From NCBI GenBank assembly GCA_015655015.1, contig JAATFV010000101.1, positions 1 to 64,000 on the forward strand: a stretch of 64,000 bases of DNA, given 5' to 3'. The position numbers and the translations under genes are program-made. The DNA is from Chitinophagales bacterium (lineage in GTDB: Bacteria; Bacteroidota; Bacteroidia; Chitinophagales; Chitinophagaceae). The stretch's first letter is position 1. Each line of letters opens with the position of its first letter. Positions 6,920-59,076 of this stretch are shown here, in pieces. Under the pieces are notes generated by a model, which saw only the letters and a list, made by a program, of their open reading frames with translations, did not search any database and had not been told where the DNA came from.

Positions 6920-7510
6920 ATGAAATCAGATGACGAAAATGAGCTCCTGATCTCCATTGCTGAGGGGGATGAAGAGGCATTTGCTTCCTTCTACTCGTCG
7001 TACGCGCCCCGCCTGAAAGCCTATGCCTGGAAATTTACCAGGTCCCGGGAAGATACGGAAGAGATCATACAGGAAAGCTTTTTGCAGGTCTGGCTTCATC
7101 GGGACAAATTGCCCGGACTTGATCACGTACAGGCCTGGATCTATAAGATCACCGCCCGCTGCTGCCTGCAATGGATACGCCGGCAGACCGGTGAGAACAA
7201 CCGGGTAGCCAGATTGGCTGCATTCAACGCCGCCCTGGTCCTTCCTACCCCCGCTGACTTCGTACAATGGCAGGAGCTGAAGACCGTGGTAGAGACTGCC
7301 ATTAACAGCCTGCCTCCGATCCGCCAGGAGATCTACCGTATCAACCGCGAAGAAGGACTCAAACCTGCTGCCATTGCCATCCGGCTCGATATGCCGGTCG
7401 GCACCGTAAAAAATCATCTTAGCCAGGCTATCAGATCGATCCGCGACCAGCTGCTGGCCTTCGGCTATCCGGTTGAAACGCTGATTGTCCTTCTATTTTG
7501 GCTCCTTTAA
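6920..7510 (+). CDS. ECF-type RNA polymerase sigma factor
   Basis: 196 residues with sigma region 2 (FYSSYAPRLKAYAWKFTRSREDTEEIIQ split over residues 24-51, then ESFLQVWLHRD) and sigma region 4 (NSLPPIRQEIYRINREEG, then AAIAIRLDMPVGTVKNHLSQA, residues about 129-168). It is expected to be held inactive by the FecR protein encoded 59 bases downstream and to drive the susC operon at 9029. The C-terminus is an unusual hydrophobic tail, ETLIVLLFWLL. The start ATG is preceded by a palindrome that may be its operator. Confidence 0.93.
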   Translation: MKSDDENELLISIAEGDEEAFASFYSSYAPRLKAYAWKFTRSREDTEEIIQESFLQVWLHRDKLPGLDHVQAWIYKITARCCLQWIRRQTGENNRVARLAAFNAALVLPTPADFVQWQELKTVVETAINSLPPIRQEIYRINREEGLKPAAIAIRLDMPVGTVKNHLSQAIRSIRDQLLAFGYPVETLIVLLFWLL

Positions 7511-7569: not shown

Positions 7570-8832
7570 ATGGATACGCATCGAATCTCTTACTTATTGG
7601 ATCGGCAGATGGCCGGAACCTTGCTGCCTGCTGAAAGACAGGAGCTGCTCGAATTGTCGCGGCAGGCCGATACGGCGCTGTTAACGGACGCCATTGCCCG
7701 CCAGATAATGGATCACCCGGCTGCTGACCTGCAGCCGATCCTACCCGCGGAGGCCAAAGCTGCTGTTGCTTCCATTATTTCATTGGACAAACAGCTGGCT
7801 TCATCACCGGAGCAGCCGGCGCCAGCTTCGCCTCGATCCAAACACCGCGTGCCCTTTTTCAAAACAGCCTGGTTCCGCTATGCGGCGGCCGTACTGGCGA
7901 TCGTCGCCGGCATCGGCTTTCTAAGCCAGGTATACAATAAGCAACAACGGATCAATGGCCCGGCCATTGCCGTCACTTCCGCCGGCAACGACATCTCGCC
8001 GGGAGGCAATAAGGCAATCCTCACCCTCGCAGACGGCAGCCGGATCACGCTCGATAGCGCTGCTGACGGCGACCTGGCCAGCCAGGGAAATACAAAGATC
8101 CTGAAACTGCAGGCAGGATCGCTGGCCTATAAGATAGACGGGTCCTCCTCATCCGGAGCTGCAGTATTGTACAATACGATCAGCACCCCGAAAGGCGGAC
8201 AATACCAGGTCAGCCTGCCCGATGGCAGCAAGGCCTGGCTCAATGCTGCATCCAGCATTAAATTTCCTACAGCCTTCGGGAAGGATCGTACGATAGAAAT
8301 TACCGGTGAATTATTTCTTGAAATTGCGCCGGACCATAACCGGCCTTTTGTCGTCAGTACCCGTGGAACGACCATCCAGGTGCTTGGGACAAGTTTCAAT
8401 ATCAATGCCTATTCCGATGAACCTGCCGTCACCGCCACGGTATCGGAAGGCCGCGTAAAGGTGACGAGCAACCGAAAGTCCGATGCGTCAGCGATGCCCG
8501 GACCGGATGCGGCAGAGATCATTGTAACAGCCGGCGGGCAGGCTGTAGTGACCGATAGTAAAACGACCCTCAATCGCCAGGCTAACCTCGAACAGGCGAT
8601 GGCCTGGAAAAATGGACGATTTTATTTTGACCATTCGGCCCTACCCGACGTGATGCGGCAGCTACAGCGCTGGTATGACATGGACGTCGTATATGAAAAA
8701 GGAGTGCCCGAAATGTATTTTGGCGGCAAAATGTCCCGCAATGCAAACCTATCCCAAATATTGAAAGTACTGGAGACCGCCCGCGTTCATTTCCGATTGG
8801 ACGACGGCCGGAAACTGATCGTGCTTCCCTGA
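7570..8832 (+). CDS. FecR-family anti-sigma factor
   Basis: A 420-residue single-pass inner-membrane protein. Residues 1-80 are the cytoplasmic sigma-binding part, and a membrane helix lies near 103-120 (RYAAAVLAIVAGIGFLS). The periplasmic FecR domain covers about 195-300, with NTISTPKGGQYQVSLPDGSK and VLGTSFNINAYSDE. The DUF4974-type end covers about 345-420 (MAWKNGRFYFDHSALPDVM). It relays the state of the STN-domain SusC at 9029 to the sigma factor upstream. The order sigma-FecR-SusC-SusD is the standard one. Confidence 0.94.
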   Translation: MDTHRISYLLDRQMAGTLLPAERQELLELSRQADTALLTDAIARQIMDHPAADLQPILPAEAKAAVASIISLDKQLASSPEQPAPASPRSKHRVPFFKTAWFRYAAAVLAIVAGIGFLSQVYNKQQRINGPAIAVTSAGNDISPGGNKAILTLADGSRITLDSAADGDLASQGNTKILKLQAGSLAYKIDGSSSSGAAVLYNTISTPKGGQYQVSLPDGSKAWLNAASSIKFPTAFGKDRTIEITGELFLEIAPDHNRPFVVSTRGTTIQVLGTSFNINAYSDEPAVTATVSEGRVKVTSNRKSDASAMPGPDAAEIIVTAGGQAVVTDSKTTLNRQANLEQAMAWKNGRFYFDHSALPDVMRQLQRWYDMDVVYEKGVPEMYFGGKMSRNANLSQILKVLETARVHFRLDDGRKLIVLP

Positions 8833-8927
8833 GCAGCACACAGCATTGGATGCTGACCTGCCAAAAATATCACCTGTGAAATAGATCCATGAACTAACGA
8901 TTCTCAGCATGCCGGAATAACCTGAAT

Positions 8928-8958
8928 AAAAAACCGGAAGTGCTTCCGACACTTCCGG
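8928..8958 (-). terminator. Intrinsic terminator facing away from susC (antisense), copy 1
   Basis: CCGGAAGTG at 8934-8942 pairs perfectly with CACTTCCGG at 8950-8958. On the minus strand the stem is followed by six T (A-run at 8928-8933). It therefore stops transcription running antisense to the susC leader, not the fecR transcript. It lies 70 bases upstream of the susC start. The same arrangement occurs at 18694, 40586 and 55467. Confidence 0.7.
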
Positions 8959-8965
8959 CGAATAG

Positions 8966-9039
8966 TTCGGGCTGATCCAAAATTTCGCGTCGAAACGTAA
9001 TTTTTTTACAACCAAACCAATGCAATGTATGCAAAAAAC
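8966..9039 (+). promoter_or_regulatory. Conserved susC leader and start-codon element, copy 1
   Basis: TTCGGGCTGATCCAAAAT (8966-8983) recurs as TTCGGGTTGTCCAAAAT at 18734 and as TCTGGTTGATCAAAAC upstream of the minus-strand susC. ACAACCAAACCA followed by TGCAATGT and ATGCAAAAAAC at the start codon also recurs in all three. It may be the sigma-dependent promoter, a leader RNA structure or an antisense-RNA pairing region. The sequence does not decide which. Confidence 0.55.
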
Positions 9040-12000
9040 TGCTTATTGGTACAGGTCTGCCTATGCCCGGCGCCGTACCCTCAACCAAACACTTTTAGTC
9101 ATGAAATTGACTATTCTATTACTGACAGCTGCTTTACTCAACGTATCCGCTACCGGTCTCTCCCAGAATATTACGCTCTCCGGTAAAAATCTGACCCTGC
9201 GATCCGTCTTCACCGCCATCGAACGGCAAACCAATTACACCGTTTTTTTCAACGAGGACGACCTTCAGGGTACAAAACCGTTGTCCCTGAAGATAGAGAA
9301 GATGCCCCTGGCCGATTTTCTCCGGCTGGCGGAAAAAGACCAGCCTGTTCATTTCGCCATCGAAGGGAATATGATCGTGCTCTCCAGGAAAAAGAGCATA
9401 GAAACTGAATCCGCTCCTGATAAATTGCCGCCGCCCCCCGTTACGGGTATTATCCGGAACGCGGCCGGAGAGCCGGTTCCCGGAGTGAATGTGACGCTGA
9501 AAGGAGGGAAGATAGGCACTACGACTGATTCTGCGGGTAAATTCTCTCTGAATGTTGAGGCCGGTGCTACCCTGGTCATCAGTTCCGTAGGATATGGCAG
9601 GAAAGAAATTAAAGTACCTGCCGGTAAAGTAGTAAAAATCACATTGGAAGTCAGCAACTCACCGCTGGATGAAGTGCAGATCATTGCTTACGGCACATCC
9701 TCCCGACGCCTGACCACCGGCAGCGTCACTTCCGTCAAAGCAAAAGATATAGAAGAACAGCCCGTTTCCAATGTATTACAGACCCTGGCGGGAAAAGTGC
9801 CGGGCATGACGGTTGCCCAGACCGATGGCCTGCCGGGCGGATTTTTTGATATCGTTATCCGCGGCAAGAACTCCCTTTCCCAGGGATACCGTCCGCTGAT
9901 ACTGATCGATGGCATCCCCTTTTTCAATGACAAGACATCCGGATCCTTTCCCGGGGCCAACCTGTCGAATAGCCCCCTGAATGTGCTCAATCCCGCAGAT
10001 ATAGAAAGCATCGATGTATTGAAAGACGCGGACGCTACGGCCATTTATGGATCGCGCGGGTCCAACGGGGTGATCCTCATTACCACCAAAAAAGGAATAT
10101 CCGGTAAATCACGCCTCAATCTCAATGCCTATACCGGCATCAACAAGTCTACCAAAAATGTTCAGTTGATGAACACCCCGCAATACCTCGAAATGCGGAG
10201 AGAAGCATTCAAAAATGACGGCATCCAGCCAACAGCTGCCAATGCCCCCGATCTCCTCACCTGGGATACCACGAAGAACACTAATTGGAACCAACTTTAC
10301 CGGGAAGGCGATGGGGCCTCCACCAACCTGCAGCTGGATTATTCCGGCGGTACGGAATACACCAATTTCAGGATCGGCGCCAACTATCGTTATGAGACCC
10401 CGCTGAACAGCAGCGTCGCCAGAAAGGTCACTGGCAAACAGGCCCGTTATCACAAGGATGGCGTACAGCTGAATGTATCCCATATGTCTTTGGACAAAAA
10501 ATTGAAGATGACATTCAGCGCCGGTTATGACATGGACAAAAGTGATTTCACCGGCCTGGTCGGATTCATAACCCTGCCCCCCGACGCACCGAACCCCCTC
10601 GACAGCAACGGCAAGCTGGTATGGCAGGCAGGCAGCGTATCCATTACCAACCCGCTGGCGGATCTGTACAAGACCTATGCCTCCACCAACAAAATATTGA
10701 CCAGCAGCGCAGCCATCTCCTACCGGATCTTTAAGGGATTGGATTTTAAGGTCAATGGCGGGTATAATTCCATCGACTACAACGAGATCAACAGCACGCC
10801 GAAAATCGCGCTCAACCCCCTGTATAGCCCTACCTCCTCCTCTTATTTCCAGGATTCCTATGTCAGCGGCTGGCAGGTAGAACCGATCCTTACCTACAAT
10901 ACCCCGCTGGCAAAAGGCCGGCTCGGCAAGCTCGAAATACTGGCAGGGGAAAGCTGGAGCAGCAAACGCTCCGACCGGCTATCCTCCAACTTTATCAACT
11001 ACAGCAGCGATATTTATATCGGCACCAGGACAGGCGCTGCCACCACCAACTCGAATCCAGCCCTCACGGTATATAATTATCAGGGAGCATATGGAAGGAT
11101 CAACTATAACTTCGAGAACAAATATATACTCAACTTAACAGGCCGCAGGGACGGGTCCTCCCGTTTCGGCCCCGGCAGAAGATACTCCAATTTTGGAGCC
11201 GCAGGAGCCGCCTATATCTTTACCGAAGAAAAGCTGATCAAAAATACCCTGCCTTTTTTGAGTTTTGGTAAGCTGCGGGGCAACTACGGCGTCACCGGCA
11301 ATGATAATATCGGCGATTATATGTATTATAACAGCTGGGAGACCTCCGACAGCTACCACTATGATACACAGGCCAACGGCCTGCTGCCGCTACGCCTTTT
11401 CAATTCCGACTATAGCTGGGAAAAAAATGTCAAATTGGAAATGGCATTGGATCTTGGGTTTTTTGACGACAGGCTGCTGTTGACCGCCAATTACTACAAC
11501 AGCCGCTCGGGCAATCAGCTTGTCAGCTACAGGCTTCCCTCACAGACAGGCTTCACCAGCATCACGAAAAATTTCGATGCGGTAGTAGAGAACTGGGGAT
11601 GGGAATTTACCATCAACGCCAAACCTCTGGCGCATAGCCGTTTTCATTGGAATATCGATTTTAACCTGACTACGGCCAGGAACAAGCTGGCATCCTTCCC
11701 CGGACTGGCCACCTCTTCCTATGCCAATACCTATATCATCGGCAAGCCGATCACCGGCAAAAGGCTCTATCCCTTCACGGGAGTGGATCCAAAGACCGGT
11801 CTCTACACTTATAAAGGCACCACGCAGCAGGACAGGACCGTAATGAGCGACTACAATACCCCCCATTATTACGGCGGCATCACCAATAACTTCGAATACA
11901 AAGGTTTCTCGCTGGACATCTTCCTGCAATTCGTCCGGCAGGACCAGCCCGAATATATCAACCGGCTGACCGGTGCCCAGGCCGGCACGATGATCAACCA

Positions 12001-13783: not shown

Positions 13784-16327
13784 ATGCGAAAACTATTTTT
13801 ACTGATCGGCGCCTGTCTGAGCTTGGGTATTACTTTGAATGCACAACACAAAAAATCCCCTGATCCCGTGGTTAAGACGACCAATGCCGATACCGCCCAA
13901 AAACCGGCACAGGGCGGGGCACATCGTTCCGGCGCCGATACCCGCCCTTTTGAAGAGCTGGTCACTCCGGCAACCCTCACCCAAAAGGGATTATTCACCG
14001 TATATCGCAACGAGGATCATTATTTACTGGAGATACCGGATACCCTGCTGGGCCGGGACATCCTGGTGGTCAGCAGGATGGCGAAGGCCGCAGCCGGAGA
14101 AAATACGGAGGAGACCGGATACGCCGGCGATGAGATCAATGAGACCGTGATCCGTTTCGTGAAAGGGCCGCGTACCCGCCTTTTCCTGAAAACGATATCC
14201 TATCGGGTAATGAGTACTGATACCAGCAGCAACGGAATGTACAGATCCGTGCTCAATTCCAATCTGCAGCCGATCAGCGCCGCTTTCGACATCCGGACTT
14301 TTCACAAAGACAGCACCGGAAAGGTCCGGTCTTCGGTGATCGATATAACCGAATACCTGGCCGGCGACAATGACATATTGTTTTTCGGGGCAGCTGCCAA
14401 ACGGGAGCTTGGCCTGACGAATATTGCGGCCGACCGCTCCTATATCGATGACGTACGCAGTTTCCCGAACAACCTGGAGATCCGGACCGTGAAGACATAC
14501 ATGCGAACCGGGAATGGCAACAGGGCCATTCCCGCACCCGCTACCTATGAGTTGAACAGCTCCCTGGTATTGCTGCCGGAAATCCCCATGAAACCGCGTT
14601 ATTTTGACAGCCGCGTAGGCTATTTCAATACCGGCTATACGGACTTCGACGCCAATCCCCAGGGAGTGAAGGACATCAGCATGATCACCCGCTGGAGACT
14701 GGAGCCAAAAGAAGAAGATATAGAGAAATATAAAAATGGAGAGCTGGTAGAACCGAAGAACCCGATAATCTATTATATCGATCCTTCTACTCCTAAAAAA
14801 TGGGTGCCCTACCTCATTCGCGGGATCAACGACTGGAAAGCCGCATTCGAACAGGCGGGTTTTAAAAATGCGGTCATCGGCAAAGAGGCGCCGCAGGACG
14901 ATTCTACCTGGAGCATTGACGATGCACGGCACAATGTAATTGTATACAAGCCTTCCCCGGTTGCCAATGCCAATGGCCCGAATGTACATGACCCGCGAAG
15001 CGGTGAGATCCTGGAGACGCATATCAACTGGTACCACAATGTTATGAGCCTGATACACAACTGGTACATGGTCCAGACCGCTGCCGTGGATCCCCTTGCC
15101 CGGAAAATGCGTTTCGATGACTCTTTGATGGGACAGCTGATCCGTTTCGTTTCCTCGCATGAAGTAGGACATACCCTGGGCCTGCGTCATAATTTCGGTT
15201 CTTCTTCCACCGTTCCCGTCGAGCTGCTCCGCAACAAGGCCTGGGTGGAAGCCAATGGCCATACTCCTTCCATCATGGACTATGCACGTTTCAACTACGT
15301 GGCGCAGCCCGAAGACCATATCTCCGAAAAAGGCCTCTTTCCCCGGATCGGGGACTATGATAAATGGGCGATCGAATGGGGATACAAATGGAAACCCGAA
15401 TATGCTTCGGCAGCGGATGAACGGGCATGGTCCGATGATCTGATCGTGGAAAGACTGGGCAAAAACCCGCGTCTGTGGTTTGGCACCGAGTCCGATCCCA
15501 ACGATCCGCGCTGTCAATCCGAAGACCTGGGCGACGATGCCATGAAGGCAGGCAGCTACGGGATTAAAAACCTGCAGCGCATCCTGGCCGGTCTTCCGCA
15601 ATGGACGGCAGCCCCGCACGAAGGATATGGCGACCTGCATATGATGTATGGGGAAGTGATCAGCCAGTTCAAACGTTATATGGATCACGTGCTGCGGAAT
15701 ATCGGCGGCATGACGACAACCATTAAGTCGCAGGAACAGACCGGCCCGATCTATGATTTTACACCCAGGGCCAGGCAAAAAGAGGCCATGGCATTTTTAC
15801 AGCGGCAACTGTTTACGACACCTGCCTGGCTGATGAACTATAAGATAGCGGGTGTAACGAATACCAACCCCGGCTCTTCCATACTATCTATACAGCAGGG
15901 CGCCCTGCTCGGCCTGATAAACCCGATGTTATTGAACAAGCTCAGCTATTTTGAAGAGGTAAAAGGGGTAGCAGCGGCCTATACCCCCGTTGAAATGATG
16001 AATGATCTGAAAAGAGGAGTTTGGGCCGAGCTCACAACGCACCAGGCTATTCAAATGCAGCGCCGGCAGCTTCAGAAAGTATATGTCAGCATCCTTATCA
16101 ATATAGTGGCCCCTAAACCTGTTCCTTCCACCGCTATCCAGATGAGCACCAACATGGTTATTGCGGTCAGTAACACAGATGGTATGTCCGTTCTGAAAGG
16201 ACAGGCCCAAAGCCTGCTGGCGGAAATAAAAGCCGCCATTCCCCACGCTCCGGATAAAACTACCCGTCTGCATTTAGCCGATATGGCCGGAAGGCTGTCC
16301 GATGCCCTTGGTCATCCCTCTCCGTAA
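13784..16327 (+). CDS. Secreted zinc-dependent metalloprotease (DUF5117/DUF5118/DUF4953 type)
   Basis: 847 residues with a signal peptide (MRKLFLLIGACLSLGITLNAQ). The catalytic motif HEVGHTLGLRH at residues 459-469 gives zinc ligands His459, His463 and His469 with Glu460 as base. A metzincin-like Met-turn, SIMDY, follows with Met498. The N-terminal half (FLLEIPDTLLGRDILVVSRM-like, with RFVKGPRTRLFLK) matches the DUF5117/5118 region of this family. It closes a sigma/FecR/SusC/SusD operon, which suggests it cuts proteins or peptides before or after uptake. The substrate is unknown. No frameshift or missing catalytic residue was seen. Confidence 0.9.
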   Translation: MRKLFLLIGACLSLGITLNAQHKKSPDPVVKTTNADTAQKPAQGGAHRSGADTRPFEELVTPATLTQKGLFTVYRNEDHYLLEIPDTLLGRDILVVSRMAKAAAGENTEETGYAGDEINETVIRFVKGPRTRLFLKTISYRVMSTDTSSNGMYRSVLNSNLQPISAAFDIRTFHKDSTGKVRSSVIDITEYLAGDNDILFFGAAAKRELGLTNIAADRSYIDDVRSFPNNLEIRTVKTYMRTGNGNRAIPAPATYELNSSLVLLPEIPMKPRYFDSRVGYFNTGYTDFDANPQGVKDISMITRWRLEPKEEDIEKYKNGELVEPKNPIIYYIDPSTPKKWVPYLIRGINDWKAAFEQAGFKNAVIGKEAPQDDSTWSIDDARHNVIVYKPSPVANANGPNVHDPRSGEILETHINWYHNVMSLIHNWYMVQTAAVDPLARKMRFDDSLMGQLIRFVSSHEVGHTLGLRHNFGSSSTVPVELLRNKAWVEANGHTPSIMDYARFNYVAQPEDHISEKGLFPRIGDYDKWAIEWGYKWKPEYASAADERAWSDDLIVERLGKNPRLWFGTESDPNDPRCQSEDLGDDAMKAGSYGIKNLQRILAGLPQWTAAPHEGYGDLHMMYGEVISQFKRYMDHVLRNIGGMTTTIKSQEQTGPIYDFTPRARQKEAMAFLQRQLFTTPAWLMNYKIAGVTNTNPGSSILSIQQGALLGLINPMLLNKLSYFEEVKGVAAAYTPVEMMNDLKRGVWAELTTHQAIQMQRRQLQKVYVSILINIVAPKPVPSTAIQMSTNMVIAVSNTDGMSVLKGQAQSLLAEIKAAIPHAPDKTTRLHLADMAGRLSDALGHPSP

Positions 16328-16678: not shown

Positions 16679-17272
16679 GTGCATACGCATCCGACTATAA
16701 CAAATTATAGCGTCCTTGAAGACGGGGAACTGGTGAGCTTGCTGAATACTGGCAACAGGGAGGCTTTCGACGAACTGTACAGGCGCTATTGGCTCCTGCT
16801 TTATGATGCGGCTTACAAACGATTGGAAGACAAACAGCAGGCGGAAGATATTGTACAGGAAGTTTTTATCCGGCTGTGGATGCGAAGGAACGAGGTGGCT
16901 ATCGGTGCGGTTGCCGCCTATCTCCACACGGCGGTACGGTATAGTGTCTTAAGTTATATTACCCGCCATAAGGTATCGCTCAGCTTTTATAATTCTTTTG
17001 AGGCGCTGCTGCTCCTTGAAAAAGATACTCCTGAGGATCAGCTTCTTACGAAAGAATTGCTGGTATCGGTGTATGCCTATGCAGAAACCCTGTCGGAGCG
17101 GAAAAAGCAGATCTTTTTGTTGCATGTCCACCATAAACTTACTACCCGGGAAATTGCCGATGCACTGGAAATTTCCCAAAAGGCCGTACAAAACCAGCTT
17201 GGTCCTACTTTAGACGGCCTGCGTTCCCATCTTGCTCCTGTGGTCCTGGCGATTATCGCCAGCCGGTTTTAA
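16679..17272 (+). CDS. ECF-type RNA polymerase sigma factor
   Basis: 197 residues starting with GTG (no in-frame ATG fits). Region 2 spans about residues 25-90 (FDELYRRYWLLLYDAAYKRL, DKQQAEDIVQEVFIRLWMRR). Region 4 lies at about 130-180 (LSERKKQIFLLHVHHKLTTR, then EIADALEISQKAVQNQL). It ends in a short hydrophobic tail, APVVLAIIASRF. The fecR gene follows after 69 bases and the susC it should control begins at 18798. Confidence 0.92.
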   Translation: MHTHPTITNYSVLEDGELVSLLNTGNREAFDELYRRYWLLLYDAAYKRLEDKQQAEDIVQEVFIRLWMRRNEVAIGAVAAYLHTAVRYSVLSYITRHKVSLSFYNSFEALLLLEKDTPEDQLLTKELLVSVYAYAETLSERKKQIFLLHVHHKLTTREIADALEISQKAVQNQLGPTLDGLRSHLAPVVLAIIASRF

Positions 17273-18693: not shown

Positions 18694-18727
18694 AAAAAAA
18701 GCCGCCACGTGTAGAAGACGTGACGGC
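18694..18727 (-). terminator. Intrinsic terminator facing away from susC (antisense), copy 2
   Basis: GCCGCCACGT (18701-18710) pairs with ACGTGACGGC (18718-18727) with one mismatch and a 7-base loop. On the minus strand seven T follow (A-run 18694-18700). It sits 70 bases before the susC start, the same distance as copy 1. Confidence 0.65.
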
Positions 18728-18733
18728 CGATCG

Positions 18734-18808
18734 TTCGGGTTGTCCAAAATAGCTGTTTTCGCACAAGTATTTTTTAACAACCAAACCACTGCAATTTATG
18801 CAAAAAAC
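18734..18808 (+). promoter_or_regulatory. Conserved susC leader and start-codon element, copy 2
   Basis: TTCGGGTTGTCCAAAAT at 18734-18750, then an AT-rich stretch, then AACAACCAAACCACTGCAAT and ATGCAAAAAAC across the start codon. It aligns base for base with the copy at 9008-9039 over most of the last 30 positions, although the coding sequences downstream diverge quickly. Confidence 0.55.
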
Positions 18809-21800
18809 CAAAACTCTGCGGGTGATGAAGTTGACTGCCTTTTTTCTCACTGCTGCTTTTTTGAGCGCCCACGCCTCCGGCGTATCACAAAGCATTACCT
18901 TTTCGGGAAAGGATGTTCCCCTGAAAAAGATCTTTTATACGGTAAAAAAACAAACGGGCTACCTGGTCTTCGGAAATGCCGACCTCTTGAAAGAAGCCTC
19001 GCCTGTAACGATCTCCGCCCGTGATATGCCGCTGGCCGATTTTATGGAAAAGGTCCTGAAAGACCAGCCTTTAAGCTTCCGGATAGCTGACAAAACGATC
19101 ATTCTTTCCGAGAAGGCGCCTTCCGTTCCCGCCCCTGCCGGGCCTCCGGAGCAGCCCGCCTCTGTTGCCGCAGATCCGGCGCCGCCTGCTACCGTTGCCG
19201 GCAGCATCCATACGACCTCTGGCGAACCCCTCGCCGCTGTTTCCATCCGGGTCAAAGGCTCCGGGCTCGGTACGACCAGCGACGGCCAGGGGCGTTTTTA
19301 TCTGCATGACCTGCCTGAAAACGCCGTACTACAACTATCCATCATCGGGTATCAGCCTCTCACGATCGGCATCCGCCGGGGCGCCAGAGGTTATACGGCG
19401 TATACCCCGGACAAGAAGCAGTCCGATTGGCTGAAAGTCAACGACGGAGAGAGTCTCAACCTGGCCATCATTTTGAAAGAGAGCTCCAGTGAGCTGGACC
19501 AGGTGCAGATCCAGGCTTATGGCACGACATCCAGACGTTACAGCACCGGCAATATCAGTAAGGTCACTTCGGAGGAGATCGCGAGCCAGCCCGTAACGAA
19601 TGTCCTGGGCGCCCTCGATGGCCGTGTGCCGGGGATGGTCGTTACGCAGACGACCGGTGTGCCGGGCGGGACCTTTAAGGTGGAGGTCCGGGGACGCACC
19701 GCCCTGGATCCCAACCTCACCGACGATCAGCCCTTATTCATCATAGACGGCATTCCCCTGGCTGCGAATAACGGGTATACCAATCTGCAAAGTTCTGCAT
19801 TGGGCTACCCGCTTAACCTCAACACGACCACCCTGGCGGGGGGCGTCAGCCCGCTGAATGGCATCAATCCGCAGGATATAGAGAGCCTGGAAGTCCTGAA
19901 GGATGGCGATGCCACGGCCATTTACGGTTCAAGAGGCGCCAACGGCGTCGTTTTGATCACTACGAAAAAAGGTCATGCCGGCAAGGCAAAGGTCGACATA
20001 AACGCGTATAAGGGCGTCAGCCTCCCGGCAAAGGGTGTTAAAATGATGGATACGAAGCAATATATGGCTATGCGAAATGCCGCCTTTGTGAACGACGGAG
20101 AGACGCCGGATGATTATAGCTGGTTCAATTATTATAATGCCTACGACCTCCGGATATGGGATACCACGCGGTACACCAATTTCTATAAGCTGCTCAATAA
20201 GAATACGGCGCAGACCGATGACGTACAGGTATCCGTGTCGGGCGGCAATAACGGAACTACCTTCCGGGTGGGAGGATCCTATCATGACGAATCGGCGGTC
20301 ATGCCGGGGAATAAAGGCTATCAGCGGGGAGGCCTTCAGTTCAATGTCAATCATATTTCCGCAGACCAGCGTTTCAAACTGGGGCTTACAGGCAACTATT
20401 CCGCTGATAAGAACAATCTCGTCGAGAATGATCCTGCGTCCAACCTCAACATGCCTCCCAATTTACAGGTATACGACAGCCTGGGGAACCTTGCCTGGAA
20501 TGAAGGAGGGGTCTACGCGGGCCTGGTAGGCGTTAAGAATCCTCTGGCTTTTCTGAATCAATCCTATAAGGCCAATACCAACAGCCTGGTAGGCAGCCTG
20601 CAGCTGAGCTATGCTGTATTAAAGAACCTGGTCATCCGGGTCAATGCAGGTTATAATACGGTGACCACCAATGAACTGACCCTGTACCCGCTTACGGCGC
20701 AGGATCCTTCATCCTCTCCCACACGTACTTCCACCACCAGCATCGACCAGTACAAGAGTTGGATTGCAGAGCCGCAAGCCGAATACACGCAGCAGATCAG
20801 CCGGGGAAAGCTGGATGTGCTCTTAGGCGGTTCCTGGCAGACAACGGACAACACCGGGCTGGTCATCAATGCTGCGGGTTATAGCAGCGATGCCCTGCTA
20901 AGATCCTTATCCGGCGCTACCAGTTATACCCCTACCAATACTGTTAGCCAATACCGTTATAATGCATTTTTCGGGCGGATCAATTATAACTGGGAAAATA
21001 AATACATCCTCAATCTTTCTGCAAGACGGGACGGGTCCAGCCGTTTTGCGGAAGAGAACCGTTTTGCCAGTTTCGGCGCGGTCGGCGCCGCCTGGATATT
21101 CACGAATGAATCGTTCGCCCGGGGCCCTGGTTTTCTCAGCTTTGGCAAGATCCGGGGCAGCTATGGGCTGACGGGCAACGACAAGATCACTAATTATCAA
21201 TACCTGGACACCTGGAACAGTACGGTCACCCTTTACAATGGGCAGGCCGGCCTCTATCCCAACAAATTGTATAATTCCAATTATCACTGGGAAAAAACAA
21301 AGAAGCTGGAGGGAGCGATCGACCTGGGATTCCTGAAGGACAGGATCCTCTTTTCGGCTGCACATTACATCGACCGCAGCTCCAACCAGCTGGTATATTA
21401 CAAGCTGCCGAATATCACCGGGTTTACCAGCATTGTGCGCAACCTGCCCGCCATGGTACAGAATTCAGGATGGGAGTTGACCCTCAACACGAGAAATATT
21501 GACCGTAAGCGTTTCAAGTGGGTGACGACTTTTAATATCACCCTTCCCAAAAATAAGCTGATCTCCTTCCCCGGTCTCGCCGGTTCCTCCTACGCGAATA
21601 CCTATGTGGAAGGCCAGTCCCTGAATGTCATTTACGGGTATAAATATACCGGGGTAGACCCGCAAACCGGCGTTTATACGTTTAAGGACGTGGATAAGAA
21701 CGGGCAACTGACGGCAGCGGATTACCAGGTCTCGGGCAACCTGGACCCGAAATTCTATGGCGGGCTTCAAAACTCCCTGACCTACGGGCATTTTCAGCTC

Positions 21801-39900: not shown

Positions 39901-40517
39901 CGGCCGGTGTTGTCCGAAGTGACGCCGCCCTGGTTCTTTTTGAAAGAAATAGATGCTCCGGCGACAGGCTCGCCCGTTTCTGCATTGTTAATAAACCCTG
40001 CGATCGTGACGGTGGGCTGTGCGGCTGTTTTCACCCTGTTGTCTTCCGTTGCCCGTACAATAACGGGCGGAAGTCTTTCGGATAGAATAATGGTATTGTC
40101 CGTGACTTTGTACGTGTAGGGCTGATCTTTCATGATCAATGCGAGAAAGCTGGCCAGGGGCATTTTATTGACGGATACCGTTACCGGCCGGGAATTTTCC
40201 AGGAAGTCCAGCTTCCCCCAAACCAGGAAGCCCGTCTGATGTTCGATGGACCTGAATACCTCTTTCATCCGTAAGTCTTTACCGGATAAAGAAATGGTTT
40301 GGGACGAGCTTTTGGCGGAAACGTGCAGACAAAAGATCAACAGTACGATGGAAGTCATTCTCATAATTCTCAGCATTTGAGCTGGTAGCCGGATCGGTCC
40401 TGCCTTATAGATCCTTTGCATAACCCGGGCGATCTGGTCTTTGCGACCCGGATGAAAAGGTGCCAACGGGTTGGGATCTGCATGAGAGTGCCGGCTACAA
40501 TTAGCGGTTTTTTGCAT
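36969..40517 (-). CDS. SusC/RagA-family TonB-dependent receptor with STN domain and long N-terminal extension
   Basis: 1182 residues from the conserved ATGCAAAAAAC start. About 51 residues rich in H, P and R precede a normal signal core (MRMTSIVLLIFCLHVSAKSS), so a start near 40364 is possible. The STN domain (LRMKEVFRSIEHQTGFLVWG) lies at about 80-145 and the carboxypeptidase-like domain near 170-250. The plug has LKDAASTALYGSKAANGVIV, and the barrel ends SFSLNVSF. The usual VGYGTQ segment at the plug start is replaced by INNGIFKRNKVSFTG. It is controlled by the sigma/FecR pair at 40761-42690. Confidence 0.92.
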   Translation of the reverse strand: MQKTANCSRHSHADPNPLAPFHPGRKDQIARVMQRIYKAGPIRLPAQMLRIMRMTSIVLLIFCLHVSAKSSSQTISLSGKDLRMKEVFRSIEHQTGFLVWGKLDFLENSRPVTVSVNKMPLASFLALIMKDQPYTYKVTDNTIILSERLPPVIVRATEDNRVKTAAQPTVTIAGFINNAETGEPVAGASISFKKNQGGVTSDNTGRFILPGAPADATLIISSVGYNSLEIPLIGLTGMLPNSSVTVNTTIVRKASNGSFIISLKPVRTALGEVVINNGIFKRNKVSFTGAVSTFTGDELKTIGNKNVLQSLVTLDPSLIKVDDNLQGSNPNKMPTLEIRGKTTLTNANLNDQFNADPNQPLFILDGFETTLQTIYDLDMNRVANITILKDAASTALYGSKAANGVIVVETKRPIPGKLQGSYVGDYSFDLPDLSSYNLMNASEKLKWEKLAFYPPNGSQPTDWRIEERNAALQTAVAQGVNTYWLRVPVRTGVTNKHSLQLNGGNNELSFNAGGTYSNQNGVMKGSGRNNYGGNIDLTYRKGKLNITEMAIISGNTATESPYGSFATFAATNPYYRKTNADGTISRQLDPIYDTSVINPLYNATLYSLNQTKTFSFANNIRGIYTLSREFQIEGGLQLSKGNVTGIVFVPPDNTIYDGVDPHQKGSYTNNHQENRSYTGNVTLIYGTLIGKSQISAIARGQLQSTTNEAISFSIVGFPYGTNGNPAFAYGFTPYSVPQSGNVTSRNVDFTSNVSYSYDRRFMFDGVYTLNGTSAFGSNKRYKPFVSGGLGWNLQQEALFRQYKWMNLLKLRGNFGYSGNQNIGNFTSVSTYNFVGGNNNNFGQGLSLASLGSPNLQWSKTLQQSYGIDFSFLNSRITGSVEYYKKKTDPLAVTAEGTLPSSVALNDNYVINVGNLTTKGWNFNLRYSPIYNLKDRILWTIAITGVKTSSVYGGFGDRLAALNKDELASNGLSRYYDGYSPDDIWAVVSHGIDPATGQEIFQKKNGTLNYYYDPADIVRVGNTRPKVEGIITTTFTYKDFNFGANARYRIGGYVFNSALYDKVENINLTPSGAILVPLTANLDRRALYDRWQKPGDVTQFTAINTGNPSPMSSRFVEKDNHLIGESFNIGWRSSAAWIRSLHLQTIGLNFYLNDIFRIESIKSERGLDYPFSRTASFSLNVSF

Positions 40518-40578
40518 AAATTGCAGTGTGTTTGGTTATTAAATAGCGGTGTAAGACTCTGCGTTTTGATCAACCAGA
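40507..40578 (-). promoter_or_regulatory. Conserved susC leader and start-codon element, copy 3
   Basis: On the minus strand TCTGGTTGATCAAAAC (40563-40578) resembles the motif in copies 1 and 2. ATAACCAAACACACTGCAAT and ATGCAAAAAAC cover the start codon. The spacing from the hairpin to the ATG is 69 bases, against 71 and 71 (start to start of elements) in the other copies. Confidence 0.5.
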
Positions 40579-40585
40579 TTATTTG

Positions 40586-40620
40586 CCGGATTTCGCCAGC
40601 CAGCGTGGTCCGGTTTTTTA
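40586..40620 (+). terminator. Intrinsic terminator facing away from susC (antisense), copy 3
   Basis: CCGGA (40586-40590) and TCCGG (40609-40613) close a hairpin that can gain an inner CCA/TGG pairing. Six T follow at 40614-40619. The susC gene runs on the minus strand, so this plus-strand terminator again stops antisense transcription, 69 bases from the start codon. Confidence 0.6.
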
Positions 40621-40760
40621 TTTCTGTTGATCGGTGCATACCGGGACTTCTTGCTGTAAATCCCGGGACTATGGGTTGTTATGGGTTTATTAAGGGGTAA
40701 GTGTTCCGATACTATCCGGATATTATCCGGGAAGCCGACCGTGTCTTACCGGTCAGCGCT

Positions 40761-55466: not shown

Positions 55467-55503
55467 AAAAAAAGCGGGAACCACCCTGGTAAGGCATTCC
55501 CGC
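55467..55503 (-). terminator. Intrinsic terminator facing away from susC (antisense), copy 4
   Basis: GCGGGAA (55474-55480) pairs with TTCCCGC (55497-55503). On the minus strand seven T follow (A-run 55467-55473). It lies 82 bases before the susC start at 55585. Its 16-base loop is larger than in copies 1 and 2. Confidence 0.6.
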
Positions 55504-55571
55504 ACAGATAACGCTTAAAGATCAAGTAAGCCGCAATCTCTGGTACAGATGACGGCTATTATTCACCTTTA
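55467..55571 (-). ncRNA. Predicted antisense RNA over the susC leader
   Basis: A promoter-like element at 55578-55609 and the terminator at 55467-55503 would bound a transcript of about 105 bases, complementary to the susC leader up to the start codon. Layout resembles DonS, the cis-antisense RNA of a Bacteroides fragilis SusC system. Transcription itself is not shown. The end near 55571 is estimated from the promoter box. Confidence 0.35.
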
Positions 55572-55577
55572 ACTCAG

Positions 55578-55609
55578 TAAACATATGAAATTTTTTAAAC
55601 ACCCCAAAA
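55578..55609 (-). promoter_or_regulatory. Candidate antisense promoter at the susC start codon
   Basis: On the minus strand TTTTG (55605-55609), a 19-base spacer and TATGTTTA (55578-55585) match TTTG-N19-TAnnTTTG except in the last base. The box touches the A of the susC ATG. Confidence 0.4.
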
Positions 55610-58600
55610 TGGGTGTAAGGGACAGCTATTGGTTGCTTAAGTCCATCTTAATCATGAAACTAACGCTAATACTATTACTCTTTTTCAATCTCCATGTGAT
55701 TGCGGATGTCCATTCGCAAACAAAGGTGACCCTCAATCTCAAAGCGGCGGATTTCAAGAAGATCATTTCCAGCATCGAGAAGCAAAGTATTTATCACTTT
55801 ATTTATAGCTAACGCAAGATACCCTTGCTGCGGAAAATGGATATTAATGTCCGGAATGAAGAGGTATCCCGGCTGCTGGATGATCTGATGGCTAATTCCG
55901 GTTTTAAATACAGCGAGCTGGCCAATCACCTGATCGTGATCACCCAGTCAGAAAATGAGATCAAGGCCAGTAAGTTTACCGGGAAAGTGCTCGACGAAAA
56001 GGGGCAGCCTTTGGTAGGGGCATCCATTCGGATAAAAGGCACGAAGACGGGGACTACTACAGATGTCAGCGGTCAGTTCACCCTGGAGGTGCCGGACAAT
56101 ACCGTATTGGTCATTAGTTTCCTTGGATATGAAGACAAGGAGGTCACCGCTGGTGGTATGGCCTTGCAAACTATTTCCCTGACTCCTTCCAATAAGAGCA
56201 TGAATGAGGTGGTAGTGGTAGGGTATGGTACGCAGAAGAAAGTGAATTTGACCGGCGCCATTGCCACTATCGGGGCTGAAAAATTAGAAGGCCGGCCGAT
56301 GGTGAACCTGGGAGACGGATTGGAAGGGCTGATCCCCAACCTGAATGTGAATATGGCGAGCGGGCAGCCAGGGACAAAAGCCACTTTTAATATCAGGGGC
56401 CTTACCACGTTGACACCGGGGACTACCACTCCTACGACGGTCACTTCCGCGCCGCTGGTATTGGTGGATGGAGTTTCCAGGGACCCGAACCTGATCGATC
56501 CCAATGATGTGGAAAGCGTCACGGTATTAAAAGATGCTGCTTCGGCTGCTATCTATGGGAGCAGGGCCGCGAATGGCGTCATCCTGATTACCACCAGGGT
56601 GGGGAAAAAAGGCCCGCCCCGGCTGAGCTATTCAGGCTCTTACACGACATCACGTCCGACACAGTTAGTGAAACAGGTAAACTCGGACGATTATATCAGG
56701 ATGTTCAATTATGCCAACAGGTCCGGCCAGGCGAGCGGCGGTTATACGACCAGCCCTTTTACGTCGACCGACTCTGCGATGGCGGCGGCTTACCGGAAGG
56801 ATCCCAAAAATAATCCGACGGGTTATGCCGACCCGGGCAATCCAATAAAATACCGGTATGTAGGCAATACGGACTGGATGAAAGTGCTGTATCCCGGATG
56901 GGCTCCCCAACAGCAGCATAATCTATCCTTGTCGGGCGGGCAGGAAAATACGACCTATACGGCAAGCATGGGTTATTACCGGCAGGAGGGATTGGAGAAG
57001 ACCGCGAACCAGGTATTCCAACGGTATACGCCTTCTTTAAAATTGAATAGCGAGCTAACGAAATGGGCTACGGTGAATCTGAGCCTGTCGCTGACGCATG
57101 TCGATAATAATCAGCCGGCTGCCACCCGGATCGGCCAGGGCGGGCCGACGAACGGCGCCTGGCTGCTGTCGAATTTGCCACCGGTGATGCCTGTCCGCAA
57201 TCCTGACGGGCATTATGCGGGTCAGGGGAATTACACCAACCCGGTAGCTGTAAATGATTTGTCCGGAAGGGATATCGATGCTCAGAACGATTTCTGGAGT
57301 ACGGCCAGGATCATACTCAAGCCGGTGAAACATCTTAACATAACAGCCGATTATACCTGGAATTCCTTTGCGGAATTCGAGAAGGCCAATTTAATTCCTT
57401 TCAATGAGTATGGGGTCAACGGAGCATTCCTGGATATCTATCCCTGGACAAATCCCTCACAGGTAACCGAAAACAGGCAGAACAATACGTATAAGGCGCT
57501 CAATGCCTATGCTACTTATGAGAACACATTTTCCCAGGCTCATTATGTTAAGCTGCTGGTGGGTTATAACCAGGAGTATCAGCATTACCAGCTAAGCAAT
57601 TCCCTGGCGAAAAACCTGGTCGATCCTAATCTGCCGGCAATCGGCGTTAACACTGACAGTAAGCCGGCTGTCGGCGGGACAGAGACGGAATCGGCCCTTG
57701 TCGGAACCTTTACGCGGCTGAACTATATTTATAAGAACAGGTATTTACTGGAGATAGATGCGCGGTATGACGGGACTTCGCGTTTCCGGCCCGATAACCG
57801 GTATGTTACTTCTACTTCCGCCTCTGCAGGATGGAATATCGCCGAGGAATCTTTTATGACTGCCATCAGAAGTACGGTCAATCAGCTGAAGCTGAGAGTC
57901 TCTTATGGCCAGCTGCCGGATCAGCTGACACCACCCGGATTACCTTCCTCCACTTCTCAATATCCTTATTTAGCGACCCTGCCGTCAAGTACGGTGCCTT
58001 ACCTGATCAATGGTCAGCCTGGCGTTACGGCCGGGGCGCCTTTATTGATCAGTCCTTCCTTTACCTGGGAAAAGGTGCAGACCAAAAATATCGGCCTGGA
58101 TTATTCTTTTCTGAATGACAGGCTGAACGGAAGTTTTGATTACTTTATTAATGCGACCAAAGATATACTGGTCAATAGCCTTCAGCTGCCGGCGGTATTG
58201 GGTGCGGTTGCTCCACCCGCCAATTCGGCGGATCTGCGGGGGAAAGGATATGAGCTAAGCCTGAACTGGAGGGACAAGGCCCTCGACGGCAAATTATCTT
58301 ACAGCCTGACCCTGAGCTTTGCCAACAACTCCAATGTCGAGGTCACCCGTTATGGCGGCAATCCAACCAACAGTCTGAACGACCTGCGTGTGGGGGAAAA
58401 AATAGGCGATCTGTATGGTTTCGTCAATAAAGGTTTCTACCAGACGGATGCGGAAGCACAGGCCGTCGATAATTCCGCCTTGTCCGGTTATAAATGGCTG
58501 GCGGGAGATATAAAATACCAGGATCTTAATAAGGACGGCAAGATCAACTATGGCGACAAGACGACGACTAATCCGGGTGACGAAAAGCTGATCGCAAATA

Positions 58601-59076
58601 CTACTGCTCATGACAAGATCGGTCTCAGCCTTAATTTATCGTACAGCAATTTTGATTTCACTACTTTTTTCCAGGGCGTTCTAAAGCATGATTTTTATCC
58701 CAATGAATATACCTTCTATGCCTTTCGGGATGATGAATACAGTATTCCTTCGCAATACTCTACTAACTACTGGACGCCGGAACATACGAATGCTTTTTTT
58801 CCGCGTGTCCGGTTTTCCGGTGGCGGCAATGAGCAGCCGCAGGATAAATACATACTGAATGCTGCTTATTTGAGGGTAAAGCAGTTGACGCTGGGATATA
58901 GCCTGCCAAAGATGATCAGCAATAAGCTAAAGGTGCAGCGGTTGCGATTGTATTTCACAGGAGCGAATCTGTTCACCATCACTTCATTGAATAAGAATTA
59001 TGATCCTGAGGTAACTGATTTCAATACCTATCCGCTCAACAAATCCTTGTCCTTTGGTATACAGGCAACGTTTTAG
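55585..59076 (+). pseudogene. SusC/RagA-family TonB-dependent receptor interrupted by an in-frame stop
   Basis: The frame starts at ATG 55585 (signal core MKLTLILLLFFNLHVIADVH) and enters an STN domain. It meets TAA at 55810-55812 (codon 76) and continues in the same frame without further stops to 59076, 1163 codons in all. On either side of the stop the STN domain is continuous (IEKQSIYHFIYS, stop, RKIPLLRKMDINVRNEEVSR), followed by the carboxypeptidase-like domain (LDEKGQPLVGASIRIKGTK), the plug (MNEVVVVGYGTQKKVNLTGA) and a full barrel. A restart at 55825 would lack a signal peptide. It is therefore a recent nonsense mutation, a read-through case or a base-call error. Confidence 0.85.

What the first reader, a model, noticed from the sequence alone, without database searches (positions are those of the whole stretch)
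8928..9039. Antisense-facing terminators precede all four sigma/FecR-controlled susC genes, predicting cis-antisense RNAs
In each FecR-SusC gap a stem-loop is flanked on its upstream side by 6-7 A, which makes it an intrinsic terminator only for transcription running opposite to susC. Positions are 8928-8958, 18694-18727, 40586-40620 and 55467-55503. The distance from stem to susC start codon is almost fixed (70, 70, 69 and 82 bases), although the hairpin sequences are unrelated. Four out of four is unlikely by chance and points to short RNAs complementary to each susC leader. Cis-antisense RNA over a SusC leader is known as DonS in Bacteroides fragilis. Finding it at every set in a probable Chitinophagaceae genome, on systems that do not look like polysaccharide loci, would extend that regulation.
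Basis: partly seen in the sequence, partly recalled or inferred. Interest (0 to 1): 0.82.

Follow-up and report, generated by a model that had tools for sequence, protein, structure and literature searches.

The report
Antisense RNAs opposing nutrient receptor genes
Next to most sigma-factor-controlled nutrient receptor genes of this soil-type bacterium the DNA encodes what looks like a short folded RNA running backwards from the start of the gene, probably an individual brake for each receptor, of a kind so far described mainly in gut Bacteroides.

Summary
All four FecR-SusC gaps carry a hairpin that is an intrinsic terminator only against susC. In the same genome 92 of 112 FecR-SusC gaps of 90-600 bases have one near the start codon, against 13 of 225 other upstream regions. 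The terminator ends a larger unit. Between it and the susC ATG lies a conserved structure that folds well only as antisense RNA (z below -2 in 61 of 72 antisense, 8 of 72 sense) and covaries. A Bacteroidetes -7 box, TAnnTTTG, lies antisense across the ATG (perfect in 52 of 96 copies, 0 of 206 control starts). An exact-pattern scan of 84,980 species found 55 stretches, mostly Chitinophagaceae, also Mucilaginibacter: 52 lie opposite an in-frame susC ATG, 51 have FecR upstream, 53 an antisense terminator. Best reading: a multi-copy family of roughly 95-nt cis-antisense RNAs, DonS-like in layout, at most FecR-linked susC genes with a roomy gap. Transcription and repression are inferred; no RNA data were available. 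The four window copies have imperfect -7 boxes, and the family model misses the fourth.

The parts
8927..9017 (-). predicted antisense RNA 1 (about 91 nt; 5' end inferred about 12 bases upstream of the susC ATG at 9029)
   Evidence: R1 match 9021-8923, 63 bits, E 8e-10, site not in the model's training set; fold of 8927-9013: z -3.5 antisense, -2.0 sense
8933..8959 (-). terminator hairpin 1, followed by T tract 8932-8927
   Evidence: -17.7 kcal/mol;
9022..9029 (-). antisense -7 box position across ATG 9029: TACATTGC, two mismatches to TAnnTTTG
   Evidence: sequence; family statistics
18694..18786 (-). predicted antisense RNA 2 (about 93 nt)
   Evidence: R1 match 18790-18692, 51.7 bits (the same site is in the training set as L026); fold z -5.2 antisense, -2.6 sense
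18700..18728 (-). terminator hairpin 2
   Evidence: -17.7 kcal/mol;
18791..18798 (-). antisense -7 box position across ATG 18798: TAAATTGC, two mismatches
   Evidence: sequence; family statistics
40529..40620 (+). predicted antisense RNA 3 (about 92 nt)
   Evidence: R1 match 40526-40623, 40.7 bits (in the training set); fold z -4.5 antisense, -1.5 sense
40585..40614 (+). terminator hairpin 3
   Evidence: -16.0 kcal/mol; the simpler scan did not list it
40517..40524 (+). antisense -7 box position across ATG 40517: TAAATTGC, two mismatches
   Evidence: sequence; family statistics
55467..55573 (-). predicted antisense RNA 4 (about 107 nt), similar layout but diverged; not recognised by model R1
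   Evidence: fold of 55467-55577: z -3.1 antisense, -2.5 sense, outer stem with inner stem, then terminator; best overlapping R1 match 12.4 bits, E 2.1
55474..55503 (-). terminator hairpin 4
   Evidence: -15.6 kcal/mol; the simpler scan did not list it
55578..55585 (-). antisense -7 box position across ATG 55585: TATGTTTA, one mismatch to TAnnTTTG
   Evidence: sequence
6920..7510 (+). ECF sigma factor 1
   Evidence: PF04542, PF08281; TIGR02937 above cut-off
7570..8832 (+). FecR anti-sigma factor 1
   Evidence: PF04773, PF16344
9020..12343 (+). susC 1 (ORF from 9020; conserved start probably 9029)
   Evidence: TIGR04056 692.9 bits; STN and Plug domains
16679..17272 (+). ECF sigma factor 2
   Evidence: PF04542, PF08281
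17342..18646 (+). FecR 2
   Evidence: PF04773, PF16344
18798..22232 (+). susC 2
   Evidence: TIGR04056 682.8 bits
42052..42690 (-). ECF sigma factor 3
   Evidence: PF04542, PF08281
40761..41939 (-). FecR 3
   Evidence: PF04773, PF16344
36969..40517 (-). susC 3
   Evidence: TIGR04056 458.5 bits
53493..54137 (+). ECF sigma factor 4 (region 4 only matched)
   Evidence: PF08281, PF04545
54190..55431 (+). FecR 4
   Evidence: PF16344, PF04773
55585..59076 (+). susC 4; reading frame from ATG 55585 has an in-frame TAA at 55810-55812
   Evidence: TIGR04056 845.9 bits on 55825-59076; stop read

Best explanation
Each unit is a gene for a small cis-antisense RNA of about 95 nt (10-90% range 83-113, with an assumed 5' end). 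Steps. (1) Shown as sequence, over the family: a housekeeping-type -7 box lies on the antisense strand across the susC ATG, with a weak -33 element inside the first codons of susC in a minority. (2) Inferred: RNA polymerase with the primary sigma factor starts about 12 bases upstream of the ATG and runs away from susC. (3) Shown by fold, strand asymmetry and covariation: the RNA forms an outer stem (5' arm mostly GUUUGGGUU, complementary to the susC leader) around a loop or inner stem, then a terminator. (4) Inferred: while no inducer is sensed this RNA, or the act of making it, keeps the cognate susC silent, by pairing with the leader next to the start codon and/or by clashing with the sigma-dependent polymerase. 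(5) Inferred: when FecR releases its sigma factor, strong sense transcription runs through the antisense promoter and shuts the RNA off, giving a sharp switch for each receptor. The RNA would thus be an individual brake added to sigma/FecR control, as DonS is reported to be in B. fragilis.
For: Enrichment at FecR-SusC gaps, 92/112 against 13/225 elsewhere. Strand-symmetric stem search: A tract upstream in 75/91, T tract downstream in 3/91; wobble 93 antisense, 21 sense. The stretch between terminator and -7 box folds only as antisense: mean z -2.94 against -0.63, antisense more stable in 70/72; 150 control leaders show no such asymmetry (antisense more stable in 84/150). Covariation: 86.2% of cells paired, 15/19 pairs with double changes, 0/500 shuffles (38 of 70 sequences); 92.7% and 17/19 on 74 distinct sequences of relatives (alignment fitted to the model). 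Antisense TAnnTTTG perfect in 52/96 copies with the terminator, 2/45 FecR-SusC pairs without, 0/206 controls. Scan with a pattern that holds only the -7 box and the 5' arm: 53/55 have an antisense terminator within 125 bases, 52/55 lie opposite an in-frame susC ATG, 51/55 have FecR. 31 R1 matches from relatives: 30 FecR, 28 susC start within 60 bases, 23 perfect box. Repression by DonS, and anticorrelation of some B. theta asRNAs with their susC: PMC7366714 and PMC10994844, passages read.
Against: No transcript has been seen. The four window copies have -7 boxes with one or two mismatches. The -33 element TTTG at spacing 19 is present in only 12 of 96. The fourth window copy is not found by the family model. 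15 of 113 gaps of 90 bases or more have no antisense terminator. A few units occur without the expected neighbour: 3/9 and 3/16 SusC without FecR have an antisense terminator, one of the 16 with a perfect box, and 2 of 5 FecR-nonSusC starts have a perfect box. The 5' arm is partly a sense-strand element. The susC promoter was not located, so how far mRNA and antisense RNA overlap is unknown; if susC transcription starts close to the ATG the overlap could be short. In B. theta some asRNA-PUL pairs correlate positively (PMC10994844, passage), so repression is not a safe general rule.
Confidence: 0.74

Rival explanations
1. The terminators are insulators only: they stop stray antisense transcription coming out of susC from invading fecR and sigma genes, and no defined small RNA is made.
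For: Direction and position of the terminators fit; antisense transcription from random promoters is discussed as common in B. theta (PMC7366714, passage).
Against: Does not explain the conserved antisense-only fold between terminator and start codon, its covariation, nor the -7 box at a fixed place that goes with the terminator (52/96 against 2/45).
Confidence: 0.08
2. The conserved stretch is a sense-strand signal: the sigma-dependent promoter and the susC leader, with the hairpin as the 3' end of the sigma-fecR mRNA.
For: A susC promoter must lie in these gaps. The AACCAAAAC-type stretch next to the ATG also occurs, by eye, in several of the 17 gaps without antisense terminator, so part of the conservation is sense-strand. 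A sense-facing terminator is also called in 21 of 113 gaps.
Against: Wobble pairs, flanking A tract and folding energy all favour the antisense strand. TGCTTATT with up to one mismatch occurs in 32/96 gaps with the terminator, 0/17 gaps without, 1/28 short gaps and 18/225 controls, so it goes with the antisense unit rather than with susC promoters in general. The spacing of GGTTAA-type elements to it is not fixed, though only 5 matches were scored.
Confidence: 0.1
3. The RNAs act mainly in trans, as a pool of interchangeable paralogues on many susC mRNAs, like FopS in B. thetaiotaomicron, rather than each on its own susC.
For: The 5' arm and loop are shared: in a random sample, 19% of 1059 non-cognate RNA-leader pairs reach -20 kcal/mol against 2% of 1080 pairs with other genes' leaders. 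FopS sRNAs repress SusC translation in trans near the start codon (PMC11697453, abstract and passages).
Against: Cognate pairs are far stronger (median -49 against -14 kcal/mol). Nearly all copies examined lie opposite a susC start (28 of 31, 52 of 55), which trans action does not need.
Confidence: 0.15

Closest known systems
DonS and PUL-associated cis-antisense RNAs of Bacteroides (B. fragilis; 32 annotated in B. thetaiotaomicron, PMC10994844)
   Same: Short antisense RNA encoded opposite the start of a susC homologue; 78-128 nt in the literature (PMC7366714, passage), about 95 nt predicted here; housekeeping-type promoter.
   Different: Here a copy at most FecR-SusC gaps of 90 bases or more (96 counted in one genome), in Chitinophagaceae and Mucilaginibacter, with a shared covarying two-part fold and a -7 box that overlaps the susC ATG. 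Whether DonS has this fold or box was not tested: the DonS paper (PMC4999932) is not held.
FopS sRNAs and RbpB of B. thetaiotaomicron
   Same: Multi-copy paralogous small RNAs with a shared 5' part that target SusC start regions (PMC11697453, passages).
   Different: FopS has 14 members, 9 of them intergenic, about 65-70 nt, with a single-stranded 5' part and one terminator stem (same passages); those here lie opposite their own susC and have a structured 5' part. No Rfam family matched.
FecI/FecR-type ECF sigma and anti-sigma control of TonB receptors
   Same: Sigma factor, FecR and SusC in a row; the STN domain of such receptors is matched in susC 1 and, just below its cut-off, in susC 2.
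   Different: The antisense RNA is an added layer, not part of the classical scheme (recalled).

Membership tests
DonS-like PUL-associated cis-antisense RNA | encoded opposite the 5' region of a susC homologue | tested here: met
   terminator facing that way 4 of 4 in the window, 92 of 112 in the genome; 52 of 55 scan hits opposite an in-frame susC ATG
DonS-like PUL-associated cis-antisense RNA | length 78-128 nt (PMC7366714) | tested here: met
   predicted 83-113 nt for the middle 80% of 96 copies; 5' end assumed, not mapped
DonS-like PUL-associated cis-antisense RNA | promoter of the primary sigma factor (52% of B. theta cis-antisense RNAs, PMC7366714) | tested here: met
   TAnnTTTG perfect in 52 of 96 copies, 75 of 96 with at most one mismatch; imperfect in the four window copies
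DonS-like PUL-associated cis-antisense RNA | is transcribed | not testable with these tools
   no RNA data for this organism
DonS-like PUL-associated cis-antisense RNA | lowers expression of its susC | not testable with these tools
   needs mutants
DonS-like PUL-associated cis-antisense RNA | sequence or structural homology to DonS itself | not tested
   DonS sequence not at hand; paper not held; no Rfam match
DonS-like PUL-associated cis-antisense RNA | belongs to a polysaccharide utilisation locus | tested here: inconclusive
   SusC/SusD pairs present, but the gene after SusD 1 is a Met-zincin; substrates unknown
FopS sRNA family | single-stranded 5' seed and one terminator stem (PMC11697453) | tested here: not met
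   structured 5' part; no Rfam match

The most novel reading that the evidence does not exclude
A genome-wide system of about a hundred paralogous antisense RNAs, one at most FecR-controlled receptors, whose promoters are built into the first codons of the receptor genes and whose shared 5' module lets them silence non-cognate susC mRNAs as well, so that the cell expresses few of its many receptors at a time.
Probability: 0.2. Interest if true: 0.88.

Novelty: new variant of a known kind. Interest (0 to 1): 0.74.

Why it matters
This genome carries at least 150 FecR genes, and how such cells keep unneeded receptors off is unclear. A dedicated antisense RNA at most of the FecR-SusC gaps would make RNA control a regular part of this signalling family, extend the Bacteroides mechanism to other families, and give a covariance model that predicts the RNAs from sequence. 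It also offers a case where an antisense promoter may constrain the N-terminal codons of a protein: receptors with the unit have a longer stretch before the signal peptide (median 25 residues against 11 and 13) and skewed Ala and Thr codons there.

Tried and rejected
Rejected: chance. Rejected: bidirectional terminator or fecR 3' end, because the T tract is on one side only. Rejected as sole explanation: copying of one ancestral leader, because stems change by double substitutions while keeping pairing.

Led nowhere: Rfam on the window at gathering scores and on five family loci at E up to 1; a single sense promoter motif for susC; RNAalifold on the raw MAFFT alignments, which kept only one helix each time. 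An inner stem AGTY..RAYT is seen in 24 of 72 copies against 3.7 expected in mononucleotide shuffles, so it is not universal. In other genera, families and orders, 51 FecR loci gave 43 FecR-SusC pairs; 26 of 43 have gaps under 90 bases; of the 17 others, 9 have an antisense terminator (7 within 150 bases of the start), 4 a sense one and 1 a perfect box, so outside the family described here the pattern is patchy. Model R1 found nothing in 15 genomes of other families of the order and matches in 3 of 197 other class genomes, under stricter filters. 4 of 23 same-genus genomes had no match.

Rows dropped or misplaced before counts: loci L023 and L026 (same sites as the window); FecR ORFs without a stop in the locus were skipped uncounted and 9 FecR ORFs had no SusC hit downstream. 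The fourth window site was given a wrong, later start by my ORF caller, so it counts as 'without the unit' (against my reading). A1 used 38 of the 70 sequences, which are themselves those of 141 pairs with a compact stem at the usual place. Own-genome loci L181 and L201 were left out. For A2, 78 of 86 relative loci were given: L293, L317, L329 and L333 repeat sites already present, L190 has Ns, L289, L295 and L301 were left out to shorten the list; 77 matched. Control leaders: the first 150 of 225. Own-genome R1 and FecR searches scored only 150 candidates each, searches of relatives 102 or 20 per genome, so copy numbers are lower bounds. The tool may leave out records of the window's own genome.

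Full report
What is there. The window lies in an 8.1-Mb draft genome (G000). A same-genus relative (G009) has a contig of the same length (1,042,569 bases) as Puia dinghuensis NZ_BMJC01000003.1, so the window is probably from the Puia group of the Chitinophagaceae. Each of the four sets is ECF sigma factor, FecR, SusC, and a SusD follows each susC. In every FecR-SusC gap the most stable hairpin with a T tract lies on the strand opposite susC.

How common it is. A FecR search gave 150 scored matches in the genome (174 candidates). From 120 fetched stretches (105 chosen around FecR hits, 15 elsewhere), the 60 loci and the window I built 141 FecR-SusC pairs. With gaps of 90 bases or more, 98 of 113 have an antisense-facing terminator somewhere in the gap and 21 of 113 a sense-facing one; with shorter gaps 3 of 28 and 0 of 28. 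With greedy gene calling and a 135-base limit: 92 of 112 antisense and 13 of 112 sense, against 3 of 70, 4 of 88 and 6 of 67 antisense (2, 4 and 8 sense) in control regions, and 1 of 5 for FecR followed by a non-SusC gene. SusC without FecR: 3 of 9 and 3 of 16, one of these at the usual place with a perfect -7 box. The stem edge sits at a median of -72 from the ATG.

Which strand is the RNA. A stem finder that treats both strands alike found stems in 91 of 113 gaps. 75 have five or more A in the eight bases upstream, 3 have five or more T downstream. Pairs that are G-U only if the RNA is antisense number 93, only if sense 21. Leaving the terminator out, the stretch between it and the -7 box folds with mean z -2.94 as antisense and -0.63 as sense; antisense is more stable in 70 of 72. 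150 control leaders show no such difference (z below -2 in 14 antisense, 16 sense). The four window units, terminator included, have antisense z of -3.5, -5.2, -4.5 and -3.1 and sense z of -2.0, -2.6, -1.5 and -2.5.

The promoter. On the antisense strand TAnnTTTG, the -7 consensus of the primary sigma factor of Bacteroidetes (as given in PMC7366714, passage), lies across the susC ATG: perfect in 52 of 96 copies with the terminator, 2 of 45 FecR-SusC pairs without, 0 of 206 control starts; at most one mismatch in 75 of 96, 5 of 45 and 9 of 206. SusC without FecR: 1 of 9 perfect; FecR followed by non-SusC: 2 of 5 perfect. TTTG at spacing 19, as expected for the -33 element, occurs in 12 of 96 (0 of 206 controls) and in at most 3 of 96 at any other spacing from 13 to 29. 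In the window the boxes are TACATTGC, TAAATTGC, TAAATTGC and TATGTTTA, so none is perfect. Ala GCT makes up 46 of 80 Ala codons in codons 2-10 against 79 of 475 in codons 41-120, Thr ACT 28 of 46 against 63 of 509, which fits selection on the DNA there, although start regions are often AT-rich anyway (recalled).

The structure. From 38 of 70 copies a model with an outer stem of 9 pairs and a terminator stem of 10 was built. Pairs are kept in 86.2% of cells, 15 of 19 pairs show double changes, and no shuffle of 500 reaches this. On 77 matches from relatives (74 distinct) 92.7% of cells pair and 17 of 19 pairs show double changes; that alignment is fitted to the model. The 5' arm varies little, in part because it is the complement of a susC leader element seen by eye also in gaps without the unit, so covariation rests mostly on the terminator stem. 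Model R1 finds 79 places in the own genome at E up to 1. By eye four of them are not next to a listed FecR; two of these four also have FecR and SusC (L347, L349), the other two (C49, C153) were fetched but not resolved. R1 finds three of the four window copies; two of these sites were in its training set, the one at 8923-9021 was not.

Distribution. 19 of 23 same-genus genomes have R1 matches, 0 of 15 genomes from other families of the order, 3 of 197 other genomes of the class. Of the 31 matches from these genomes that were handed out as loci, 30 have FecR upstream, 28 a susC start within 60 bases and 23 a perfect -7 box nearby. An exact pattern scan of 84,980 species for the -7 box plus 5' arm gave 55 stretches: in Puia, Flavihumibacter, Lacibacter, Niastella, Terrimonas, Arachidicoccus, Flavitalea, Pseudobacter, Paraflavisolibacter, Mucilaginibacter, and metagenome genomes labelled Chitinophagaceae, Sphingobacteriales or only Bacteroidetes. 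53 of 55 have an antisense terminator within 125 bases that the pattern did not ask for, 52 lie opposite an in-frame susC ATG, 51 have FecR within 700 bases. Some of these genomes are the same as those, so the two sets are not independent. In 51 FecR loci of other genera and families, 26 of 43 FecR-SusC pairs have gaps too short for the unit.

How it probably works. The sequence shows what looks like a complete small gene: promoter, structured body, terminator, with the promoter across the start codon of the gene it opposes. The antisense RNA would be made when the sense promoter is idle and disturbed when sense transcription is strong. Repression of the cognate susC in the uninduced state is the simplest use and is what is reported for DonS (PMC7366714 and PMC10994844, passages). 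Whether pairing or collision does it is open. Because the RNAs share their 5' part, cross-action is possible: 19% of 1059 sampled non-cognate pairs reach -20 kcal/mol against 2% of 1080 controls, but cognate pairs are much stronger.

Novelty. Cis-antisense RNAs over susC are known in Bacteroides; 32 are annotated in B. theta (PMC10994844, passage). In Flavobacterium psychrophilum 287 antisense transcripts are reported and Bacteroides cis-antisense RNAs are cited, without a susC family in the passages I saw (PMC9723704). For Chitinophagaceae, one paper in the library holds both 'Chitinophagaceae' and 'antisense RNA', and its title concerns Antarctic soil. Of 28 papers with 'antisense', words beginning 'susC' and 'FecR', none of the 15 listed titles is on such RNAs. 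Broader searches were seen only as listings of their top 10-12. The library holds only open-licence PubMed Central papers, so absence from print is not established. No Rfam family matches. I therefore rate this a new variant of a known kind: likely the same sort of device, but in another part of the phylum, at most FecR-SusC gaps of sufficient length, with a definable fold and promoter. Common descent with DonS was not tested.

Noticed in passing
window 55585-55830: The fourth susC has an in-frame TAA at codon 76 (55810-55812), between the signal-peptide part and the SusC body; its antisense unit is still present. A SusC on contig C107 also reads with one TAA.
   Followed up: no
own genome G000: At least 150 FecR genes and 141 FecR-SusC pairs in one genome; the next highest among the genomes sampled had 43 FecR matches.
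   Followed up: partly
window 9020-9110, 18798-18830, 40380-40517, 55585-55660: SusC proteins with the antisense unit carry an in-frame stretch before the signal peptide, median 25 residues to the hydrophobic core against 11 and 13 in SusC without the unit.
   Followed up: partly
L183, L206, L288, L291, L297, L301, L327: Some relatives appear to have an extra hairpin inserted in the loop, before the terminator or at the 5' end of the antisense unit.
   Followed up: no
own genome, 28 FecR-SusC pairs with gaps under 90 bases: Pairs with short gaps mostly lack the antisense terminator (25 of 28), as if susC were read from the sigma-fecR promoter; possibly a second class of FecR-SusC operon.
   Followed up: no
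window 13784-16327: The gene after the first SusD encodes a Met-zincin-type protein (PF16313), suggesting peptide rather than glycan use in that set.
   Followed up: no
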